Source: Prochloraceae cyanobacterium
Lineage (GTDB): Bacteria > Cyanobacteriota > Cyanobacteriia > Cyanobacteriales > JASJDA01
Assembly (NCBI GenBank): GCA_030065755.1
Contig: JASJDA010000054.1
Span: forward strand, 1 to 44,145
Reading direction: 5' to 3'
Length of the DNA stretch: 44,145 bases
This document shows, one piece after another, positions 23,208-25,073 of this stretch. The first letter of the stretch is position 1; every line of letters starts with the position of its first letter. The notes under the pieces were generated by a model, which ran no database searches, was not told the origin of the DNA, and saw only the letters and a list, made by a program, of their open reading frames with translations. Made by a program: the position numbers and the translations under genes.

Positions 23208-23993
23208 ATGAAAGTCGCAACCTGGAACGTCAATTCAATTCGCACTCGTCAACAGCTAGTAGTTGAGTGGTTGGAAGAAACCAAAGTAGACGTTCTTTGC
23301 TTGCAAGAAACTAAAGTAGTAGATAAAGATTTTCCTACAACCCCTTTTGAACAACTAGGATATCATCTCTACATTTCCGGACAAAAGGCTTATAACGGTG
23401 TGGCTATATTCAGTCGAATTCCGATGGAAGATGTGAGTAATGGTTTTGCCAAAATTGTTGACGATTGCCTAGCAGAAGATTTCGACGCGCAAAAACGAGT
23501 TATTACTGGTGTTATTGGAGAAGTTCGTATAGTCAATCTTTACGTACCCAACGGTTCTGGTATTGGAACTGAAAAATATGACTACAAACTTAGATGGTTA
23601 AAAGTATTGGGAGAATATTTACAAATATTGGCGCGATCGCACCGAGAAATCTGCGTCTGTGGCGATTTTAACATTGCTTTAGAAGATAGAGATATTTACA
23701 ATCCTAAAGGCAAAGAAAATCATATAATGTCTTCTGATGCGGAACGCCAGGCTTTACGAGAAATTTTAGCAATTGGTTTACGAGACGCTTTCCGCAAATT
23801 TAACTCCCAAGAAGGTCATTTTACTTGGTGGGACTATCGCGCTGCTGGCTTCAGACGCAACCGAGGTTGGCGAATTGACACTCACTATCTGACCAAAGAG
23901 CTTTACGAGAAAGCAATTAGCTGCCACATTGATGTAGAACCGAGAAAGCAAGAAAAACCTAGCGATCATGCTCCTGCGATCGTCGAATTTTAG
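23208..23993 (+). CDS. xthA: Exodeoxyribonuclease III (AP endonuclease)
   Basis: This 261-residue enzyme of the Exo/Endo/Phos superfamily cuts DNA 5' of abasic sites and removes 3' blocks in base-excision repair. Motifs in order: WNVNSIRTR at the start, CLQETKV (metal Glu), YNGVAIFSR, VCGDFNIA (Asp/Asn pair), FTWWDYRAAGFRRNRGWRID, and the terminal SDHAPAIVEF with the catalytic Asp-His. Length and motifs are complete. The ATG lies just after a low-complexity repeat. The last 12 codons form the first copy of a 55-bp tandem repeat that continues past the stop codon. Confidence 0.95.
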   Translation: MKVATWNVNSIRTRQQLVVEWLEETKVDVLCLQETKVVDKDFPTTPFEQLGYHLYISGQKAYNGVAIFSRIPMEDVSNGFAKIVDDCLAEDFDAQKRVITGVIGEVRIVNLYVPNGSGIGTEKYDYKLRWLKVLGEYLQILARSHREICVCGDFNIALEDRDIYNPKGKENHIMSSDAERQALREILAIGLRDAFRKFNSQEGHFTWWDYRAAGFRRNRGWRIDTHYLTKELYEKAISCHIDVEPRKQEKPSDHAPAIVEF

Positions 23994-24127
23994 CTTTTTT
24001 TTCTCCTGATAACCTAGCGATCGCGCTCCTGCGATCGTCGAATTTTAGCTTTTTTTTCTCCTGATAACCTAGCGATCGCGCTCCTGCGATCGTCGAATTT
24101 TAGCTTTTTTTTCTCCTGATAACCTAG
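23958..24127 (+). repeat. 55-bp tandem triplication of the xthA 3' end with terminator-like hairpins
   Basis: Three head-to-tail copies (23958-24012, 24013-24067, 24068-24122) and the first bases of a fourth are present. Copy 1 is the xthA C-terminus, stop and an 8-T run. Copies 2 and 3 are identical to each other and differ from copy 1 by two bases, turning GCGATCAT into the HIP1 site GCGATCGC. This creates a 7-bp hairpin, CGATCGC-GCTCCT-GCGATCG, followed by T8. The hairpin could act as a terminator; in copy 1 it is weaker. Confidence 0.9.
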
Positions 24128-24230: not shown

Positions 24231-25073
24231 TTAATCAACTAGATAAAATCTCTTGAAAGGTTTATAAACTACTATAACTTTTCCTTTGATTTGTTTGCGG
24301 TGTATAGTCCCTATTTCAAGACTATTGTCTTGACTTTCACTCAAATTATCCCCTAGGACAAAATAGGAATTCGATGGAATATAAAGTGAGTAATTAAGTT
24401 GTCGATCGAAAGTCCCATTCAAATATTCTCTCTCAAAAAGTTTTCCGTCGATATAGATAGTGTTGTCTTTGATTGTTATTTGTTCTCCAGGAAGTCCAAT
24501 TATACGTTGTATGACATTGATTTCCTTTCTATCTGACTGTTTTATTTTAATAACAACAATATCTTCTCGACTGGGAATAAAGTAATTATTAAAAAATGTG
24601 TTGGCAATAACTGTATCTCCCATTCTGATTGTCGGAGCCATTCCATTGGATCTTCTTATAAATCTCTGAGTGAAAAACAAGAAATACAATAAGAAAACAG
24701 TAATAATTATCGTGAAAAATGAGCTAATAATACTGAAAAATGAAGATGTAATTGTAGACTCAATTGTCGGTATATCTTCTTCTAATACCAAAAGTTTAAA
24801 AAGATTAGAAATATTTTGTCCGCACCTTAGATTAATTATTTGATTCGGTAAAACGTTTACTTCAAGCGATCGACTGCGATAAAAATCTATTTTTATTTGA
24901 ATGGTATGCAAACCTGGAGAAACTTGATATCTTTCTTCCGATCCATTGCGAATGCGTCCGACCTGTTCTCGATCGATATATACTCGAAAAGAACGTCCAC
25001 CATAGGGAAATTGCCATTTACGTTGAATATAAATAGTTCCCCTCTCATTATCTCGATCTAGTTCTGGCTTCAT
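24231..25073 (-). CDS. Signal peptidase I homologue lacking both catalytic residues, with N-terminal beta-domain
   Basis: The 280-residue protein has an N-terminal hydrophilic beta domain (about 12-85, PEGA-like, GRSFRVYIDREQVGRI and SPGLHTIQIKID). One membrane helix follows at about 112-134, then an S26 signal peptidase domain. The fold motifs are clear: GMAPTIRMGD, RIIGLPGE and VLGDNLSESQDN. Active enzymes have S-M-x-P-T and K-R-x-x-G-L-P-G. Here the nucleophile is Gly144 (GGA codon) and the general base is Gln189 (CAA codon). The reading frame is intact, so it is not simply decaying, but it should not cleave. It could bind signal peptides or membrane proteins. The membership is certain and the loss of activity is very likely. 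Confidence 0.85.
   Translation of the reverse strand: MKPELDRDNERGTIYIQRKWQFPYGGRSFRVYIDREQVGRIRNGSEERYQVSPGLHTIQIKIDFYRSRSLEVNVLPNQIINLRCGQNISNLFKLLVLEEDIPTIESTITSSFFSIISSFFTIIITVFLLYFLFFTQRFIRRSNGMAPTIRMGDTVIANTFFNNYFIPSREDIVVIKIKQSDRKEINVIQRIIGLPGEQITIKDNTIYIDGKLFEREYLNGTFDRQLNYSLYIPSNSYFVLGDNLSESQDNSLEIGTIHRKQIKGKVIVVYKPFKRFYLVD

What the first reader, a model, noticed from the sequence alone, without database searches (positions are those of the whole stretch)
24231..25073. Signal peptidase fold with Ser and Lys replaced (Gly144, Gln189)
The S26 boxes around both catalytic sites are intact but nucleophile and base are gone, and an extra beta domain precedes the membrane helix. An intact frame suggests selected non-enzymatic function, for example a receptor or decoy for signal peptides or a membrane-protein chaperone.
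Basis: partly seen in the sequence, partly recalled or inferred. Interest (0 to 1): 0.68.

Follow-up and report, generated by a model that had tools for sequence, protein, structure and literature searches.

The report
Signal peptidase look-alike without catalytic residues
A cyanobacterial membrane protein looks like the enzyme that trims signal peptides but lacks both of its catalytic amino acids, and a distant relative in another cyanobacterium lacks both too, so it is probably a maintained non-cutting protein rather than a broken copy.

Summary
The 280-residue frame at 24231-25073 (-) has a type I signal peptidase (S26) domain with Gly144 at the Ser position and Gln189 at the Lys position, behind a membrane helix and an N-terminal beta domain. 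The boxes are only partly intact: box B's leading YIP and parts of box E are changed too.

One full-length homologue was found, in Coleofasciculus sp. LEGE 07092. It also lacks both residues: same Gly, but Ser instead of Gln. Codon positions show constraint on the S26 domain (44 vs 13 codons, p = 4.7e-5), and 0 of 300 simulated neutral pairs kept both frames open. A single decaying copy is unlikely.

Ser is also missing from 22 of 120 cyanobacterial S26 frames in a biased survey and from 9 of 75 in a search by N-terminal repeat. Non-catalytic S26 proteins are already known (SipA, SpsA), so this is a new variant of a known kind.

Function is inferred: most likely a non-cleaving, membrane-anchored binding or assembly factor. 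Partner and membrane side are open.

The parts
24231..25073 (-). Whole gene, 280 aa, single open frame, no evident operon partner
24768..25046 (-). N-terminal beta-sandwich domain, aa 10-102 (DUF2846 match 22.5 bits, below cut-off; transthyretin-like fold in models)
24675..24755 (-). Membrane helix, aa 107-133
24645..24677 (-). Positively charged stretch before the nucleophile site (aa 133-143, net +3); 94 of 94 Ser/Lys frames surveyed are at +1 or less
24249..24659 (-). S26 (type I signal peptidase) domain, aa 139-275
24642..24644 (-). Gly144 codon at the nucleophile Ser position
24507..24509 (-). Gln189 codon at the general-base Lys position, inside box D (VIQRIIGLPGE)
24309..24353 (-). Degenerate box E, aa 241-255 (GDNLSESQDNSLEIG): Gly-Asp-Asn and the box Asp kept, Arg and Trp lost, one residue inserted

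Best explanation
A membrane-anchored pseudo-signal-peptidase. Shown: S26 sequence and predicted fold, loss of both catalytic residues in two distant genomes, constraint on the S26 domain between them, and a conserved N-terminal beta domain. Inferred: it cannot cut peptide bonds (about 0.9); it is kept for a non-enzymatic job (about 0.85); and the job is to hold a peptide or membrane-protein segment in the old substrate groove, or to dock on an envelope protein, as an accessory or assembly factor (about 0.4). In this picture the N-terminal beta domain links that binding to a second partner. The genome has three other signal peptidases with Ser/Lys intact, so processing should not depend on this protein.
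For: Dyad lost in both members: Gly/Gln and Gly/Ser. The two are sisters in the tree with support 93/82, just under the tool's starred level. In the S26 domain 44 codons agree at position 2 but not 3, against 13 the other way, p = 4.7e-5; neutral simulation kept both frames open in 0 of 300 pairs at each of six distances. Identical blocks include SNGMAPT, RIIGLPGE, YFVLGDN and PFKR. Three Ser/Lys signal peptidases lie on other contigs of the same genome. Precedent: SipA lacks the dyad (Asp48, Gly85), keeps the cleft, shows no peptidase activity and is essential for pilus polymerisation (PMC4049620, passages).
Against: Only one full-length homologue, in 388 order genomes and in one pattern scan of genome contigs. 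Neighbours differ: exonuclease-type and glycosyltransferase genes here, frames that I read as XRE-type and replication-type in the other (no search run). Box B's front and box E have also changed, so a working groove is not certain. In SipA a cleft mutant and an Asp/Lys double mutant had no effect on polymerisation. The window's S26 domain has a very long branch, 4.64, and the bootstrap had not settled. Four-fold synonymous sites are not saturated (18 of 36 identical, 12.1 expected by shuffling, sd 2.7). The codon test cannot say in which lineage selection acted.
Confidence: 0.5

Rival explanations
1. The N-terminal beta domain does the work and the dead S26 domain is only a membrane-side scaffold or anchor, kept for folding.
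For: The N-domain is about as conserved as the S26 domain: 41 of 95 against 55 of 133 aligned residues identical, with blocks RKWQF, RSFRVYID, HTIxIKID and LRCG. Box B's front and box E have changed.
Against: Codon-position constraint is clear in the S26 domain (p = 4.7e-5) and only borderline in the shorter N-domain (23 to 11, p = 0.058). The blocks flanking the catalytic sites are among the best kept parts.
Confidence: 0.25
2. A negative regulator: it binds signal peptides without cutting and competes with, or tunes, the resident Ser/Lys signal peptidases.
For: Three Ser/Lys signal peptidases in the same genome. Inactive homologues as regulators of active proteases are suggested for rhomboids (PMC1560137, passage).
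Against: No genomic link: those genes lie on other contigs. The residue two before Ser142, in the strand that I recall as lining the S3 side of the groove, is Arg here.
Confidence: 0.12
3. It still cleaves, using other residues as nucleophile and base.
For: Ser142, two residues before the lost nucleophile, and Lys183 are kept in both members.
Against: Ser142 matches a Ser that stands two residues before the nucleophile in most surveyed frames, so it is not new. There is no Ser, Thr or Cys at 144 and no Lys or His at 189 in either member. SipA also has a nearby Lys and showed no activity.
Confidence: 0.06
4. A recently duplicated, decaying copy whose frame is open by luck, or a sequencing error.
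For: Long branch in the S26 tree; low GC, 0.324 against 0.401 for the window, though one window gene is lower at 0.294; no full-length copy in the only other genome of the genus held.
Against: A second genome has the same architecture and loss at the same two sites; neutral simulations never kept both frames open.
Confidence: 0.05

Closest known systems
SipA/LepA of Streptococcus pyogenes pilus assembly (PDB 4n31, 4k8w)
   Same: S26 fold with both catalytic residues replaced (Asp48, Gly85 in the paper); one N-terminal membrane helix; first row of the structural comparison, Z 15.0, tied with E. coli signal peptidase.
   Different: No N-terminal beta domain mentioned in the passages seen. Works in sortase-built pili (its place in a pilus gene island is recalled), whereas no pilin or sortase was among eight neighbours of the window gene. 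Different replacements.
SpsA of Staphylococcus aureus
   Same: Signal peptidase homologue listed as inactive, lacking two conserved catalytic residues, beside an essential active SpsB (PMC12445088, passages).
   Different: Not compared by sequence here; no extra domain mentioned in the passages seen.
Ordinary cyanobacterial type I signal peptidases
   Same: Same Pfam and NCBIfam families and order of boxes.
   Different: Ser/Lys dyad kept; near-neutral flank before the nucleophile (94 of 94 at +1 or less); the N-domain was found in only 3 of 388 order genomes, one of them weakly.
Cyanobacterial S26 proteins with an N-terminal membrane repeat (weak DUF5683/DUF6677 matches)
   Same: The best S26-only match of the class search, L015, has the same Gly/Gln pair; Ser is replaced in 9 of 75 members read, once by Thr.
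   Different: N-terminal part is a hydrophobic repeat, not a beta domain; 65 of 75 keep Ser/Lys.
Pseudo-orthocaspases of cyanobacteria
   Same: Dyad-less members of a protease family in the same phylum that are thought to keep the fold (PMC6426788, abstract).
   Different: Unrelated protease family; reported in nearly all sequenced cyanobacteria, whereas this architecture was found in two genomes.

Membership tests
Peptidase family S26 (by homology) | Family profile match above the curated cut-off | tested here: met
   PF10502 102.6 bits against 22.9; TIGR02227 111.8 against 47
Peptidase family S26 (by homology) | Type I signal peptidase fold | tested here: met
   Predicted model only: Foldseek 4me8, 4wvi, 1t7d at E 5e-6 to 1.1e-5; VIA Z 14-15
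Active type I signal peptidase | Ser nucleophile in box B | tested here: not met
   Gly144
Active type I signal peptidase | Lys general base in box D (or His, as in the ER type) | tested here: not met
   Gln189; Ser in the homologue
Active type I signal peptidase | Cleaves signal peptides | not testable with these tools
   Needs an assay
SipA-type pilus assembly factor | S26 fold lacking Ser and Lys | tested here: met
SipA-type pilus assembly factor | Gene beside pilin and sortase genes (recalled feature) | tested here: not met
   Eight neighbours scanned: two kinases, a response regulator, an exonuclease-type protein, a glycosyltransferase, Hsp70, DnaJ, one without match
DUF2846 (N-terminal domain) | Profile match above the curated cut-off | tested here: not met
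   22.5 bits against 34.3; not listed at all for the homologue
Two-member subfamily: beta domain + membrane segment + dyad-less S26 | Same N-domain and loss of both catalytic residues | tested here: met
   L048, 34% identity over aa 6-275, Gly and Ser; N-domain alone 190 and 199 bits, by the model built from these two

The most novel reading that the evidence does not exclude
The S26 domain has been re-purposed as a binding module that may no longer face the outside. Both members carry net +3 in the eleven residues before the nucleophile site, where 94 of 94 Ser/Lys relatives are at +1 or less. The homologue has a hydrophobic stretch long enough for two helices with basic residues on both sides. 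By the positive-inside rule (recalled) the domain may sit on the cytoplasmic face, sensing signal peptides, membrane-protein tails or anionic lipid together with the beta domain. It would belong to a wider habit in cyanobacteria of turning S26 into a non-cutting module, seen also in NACHT-S26 fusions without the dyad.
Probability: 0.15. Interest if true: 0.75.

Novelty: new variant of a known kind. Interest (0 to 1): 0.5.

Why it matters
The score is far above NCBIfam's equivalog cut-off for signal peptidase I, so dyad-less members can hide among annotated enzymes. The case is a testable example outside Gram-positive bacteria of a signal peptidase fold kept without catalysis. The survey suggests that the dyad was altered several times in cyanobacteria: the label 'not Ser/Lys' needs 13 changes on the tree, at least 7 by starred branches. 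A function for one of these proteins would show what the fold can do besides cutting.

Tried and rejected
Single decaying copy or sequencing error: rejected after the homologue and the codon test. G/Q as a fixed pair: rejected, the homologue is G/S. Membership of DUF2846: below cut-off. Defence function: PADLOC listed no match for this protein or its homologue. Relatives on plasmids: none by tblastn at E 1e-20; in viral contigs: 221 stretches matched a pattern, none confirmed. A first scan of genome contigs with the single protein confirmed nothing out of 102 stretches; the second, with the two-row alignment, confirmed 1 locus out of 81 stretches. These scans need exact short peptide matches and can miss divergent members. 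Own-family search: 2 genomes, no second full-length copy. N-domain alone: 1 of 30 relatives, the own genome; 3 of 388 order genomes, namely own, G533 and a weak 27-bit match in G639 whose 97-aa frame I did not read. Charge around the membrane helix does not separate sides in ordinary members (28 of 72), so it cannot settle topology. Promoter and terminator scans were near chance: 7 against 5.8 expected, 1 against 0.6. Synonymous saturation cannot be claimed.

Paper searches: seven. No title or abstract listed was about dyad-less S26 proteins in cyanobacteria; most subscription journals are not held. Seen: passages of PMC4049620, PMC12445088 and PMC1560137; abstract and outline of PMC6426788; the rest as listings only. 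Recalled, from no call: the positive-inside rule, the residues lining the substrate pockets, SipA's place in a pilus island, the ER-type Ser/His dyad as a defining alternative, and that HGSNAT's matched domain is luminal.

Rows dropped: the structure-job alignment has this protein plus 61 of the other 119 surveyed frames (the NACHT-type frames, L120 and many close relatives left out; for L048 the frame from its ATG was used). The repeat alignment used 23 of 24 pieces (L078 dropped, cut short by my pattern). The family count uses 75 of 79 places (four frames held no S26 part), and one of the 75 is cut before the Lys site. The 120-frame survey is biased: it was drawn from the best matches to this protein and from frames picked for their length.

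Full report
What is there. The frame 25073-24231 on the minus strand encodes 280 residues. The window is one contig of an 8.46 Mb draft genome of 455 contigs. A predicted model (mean pLDDT 81.5) shows eight strands between aa 12 and 99, a long helix at 107-133 and a mostly beta domain from 154 to 271. Pfam (aa 116-270) and NCBIfam (aa 119-273) both place the C-terminal part in the type I signal peptidase family, well over their cut-offs. The structural search gives signal peptidases first. The second look puts SipA, a known non-catalytic member, at Z 15.0 and E. coli signal peptidase at 14.6; rows that close count as tied.

The catalytic sites. Against other cyanobacterial frames and against PDB chains, Gly144 stands at the Ser nucleophile and Gln189 at the Lys base. 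M-x-P-T and RIIGLPGE are kept. The YIP that precedes the nucleophile in many relatives is IRR here. Box E has lost an Arg and a Trp found in 94 of 94 Ser/Lys frames and gained one residue. The homologue keeps that Arg and has no such insertion, but also lacks the Trp.

The homologue. The search of 388 genomes of the order found one full-length relative, in genome G533: 40% identity over aa 7-275 in the tool's table, 34% over aa 6-275 by BLAST. The named scan of genome contigs gave the same gene in Coleofasciculus sp. LEGE 07092, contig NZ_JADEWY010000188.1. That G533 is this genome is my inference from the identical frame and translation. Its catalytic positions are Gly and Ser. The letters SNGMAPT are identical in both. 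The only other genome of the window's genus held has no such gene; its best match covers the S26 part only, with Ala at the Ser site.

Is it maintained? Over the S26 domain (133 aligned codons) 44 codons agree at position 2 but not 3, and 13 the other way, p = 4.7e-5. For the N-domain the split is 23 to 11 (p = 0.058), for the linker and helix 18 to 9 (p = 0.12), for the whole gene 86 to 34 (p = 2.3e-6). Starting from this gene, neutral substitution left both frames open in 0 of 300 pairs at each of six distances; the simulation has substitutions only and an assumed base composition. Synonymous sites are not saturated. If the shared Gly means that the common ancestor had already lost the nucleophile, the constraint acted on a non-catalytic protein. 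The tree puts the pair together (93/82, just under the starred level), but both branches are long and the bootstrap had not settled. The test cannot say in which lineage selection acted.

How common is the loss? In a survey biased towards this protein and towards long frames, 94 of 120 distinct S26 frames are Ser/Lys. Ser is missing from 22, of which 11 lack both residues and 2 have Thr with Lys and could be active; 4 more keep Ser but lack Lys. The label 'not Ser/Lys' needs 13 changes on the tree, at least 7 by starred branches. Of 31 frames with an N-terminal membrane repeat, picked by motif, 15 are not Ser/Lys. For a fairer figure I searched 378 class genomes with the repeat alone: 79 places in 77 genomes, 75 with an S26 part. 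Of these 65 are Ser/Lys, 4 Ala/Lys, 2 Gly/Lys, 1 Gly/Gln, 1 Ala/Gln, 1 Thr/Lys and 1 cut off before the Lys site. So loss recurs but is the exception there. A DNA pattern for box D with Gln matched 4 of 388 class genomes: this one, G167 (Gly/Gln), G280 (Ala/Gln) and G046 (Ser/Gln).

The N-terminal domain. It is rare: 3 of 388 order genomes at E 0.001, one of them weak. Pfam's DUF2846 scores it below cut-off. Its own model from two sequences (pLDDT 76.9) and the full model point to transthyretin-like beta sandwiches, such as domains of HGSNAT (Z about 10), PepT2 (9.1) and AlgF (8.7). A shared fold shows no function. I see no signal peptide before it, so in the ordinary topology of this family it should be cytoplasmic (inference).

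Neighbourhood. The gene stands alone: 254 bases after a glycosyltransferase gene on the same strand, and tail to tail with an exonuclease-type gene whose end overlaps a 55-base tandem repeat. The homologue's neighbours look different. The same genome has three other signal peptidases with Ser/Lys, two close together on C357 and one on C26, and a small S26 protein that keeps SM and KR.

Mechanism. The best reading is a membrane-anchored pseudo-signal-peptidase that binds without cutting. Shown: predicted fold, loss, loss in the homologue too, constraint. Inferred: inactivity, binding by the groove, the role of the beta domain. SipA is the model: no dyad, cleft present, no peptidase activity found, essential for pilus polymerisation, although its cleft mutant and Asp/Lys mutant still worked (PMC4049620, passages). 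SpsA is the second precedent (PMC12445088, passages). Nothing found here ties the window protein to pili.

An odd feature. In the eleven residues before the nucleophile site both members have net charge +3. Of 94 Ser/Lys frames, 59 have 0, 34 are negative and 1 is +1. The homologue also has a hydrophobic stretch long enough for two helices. This could mean a changed topology or contact with acidic lipids. Charge around the helix does not predict topology even in ordinary members (28 of 72), so I leave it as the novel case.

Verdict. A selected non-enzymatic protein is well supported on the evidence of two members; the specific role is open. It is a new architecture of a known kind of pseudo-enzyme, of moderate interest.

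Noticed in passing
L131 (429-2969 -), L132, L133, L135 (23-2500 +): Proteins of 826-854 aa with a C-terminal S26 domain that lacks the dyad (Thr/Met in three, Tyr/Arg in one); the two scanned, L131 and L135, carry a NACHT domain.
   Followed up: partly
L015/L046, L045, L049, L078, L008, L043, L113: Cyanobacterial S26 proteins with an N-terminal membrane repeat (or of similar length) in which Ser is replaced by Ala, Gly or Glu, some also lacking Lys.
   Followed up: yes
window 23956-24127: Tandem array of a 55-base unit, 3.1 copies, 98% matches, holding GCGATCGC sites; it overlaps the end of the exonuclease-type gene and runs towards this gene.
   Followed up: no
L005 1432-1788 (+), same genome, contig C356: Small S26 protein of 118 aa with SM and KR kept, downstream of a frame that looks like a nickel superoxide dismutase (my reading, no search run).
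   Followed up: no
L075 4514-9031 (-): Very long protein with a stretch that looks like a Hint/intein-type processing domain, on the homologue's contig (my reading, no search run).
   Followed up: no
L016: Ordinary-length S26 protein (202 aa) that keeps Ser but has Gly at the Lys position.
   Followed up: no
L160 (G290, a genome of 2 contigs): The N-terminal membrane repeat stands in a 144-aa frame without an S26 part, so it may exist on its own or the gene may be broken.
   Followed up: no
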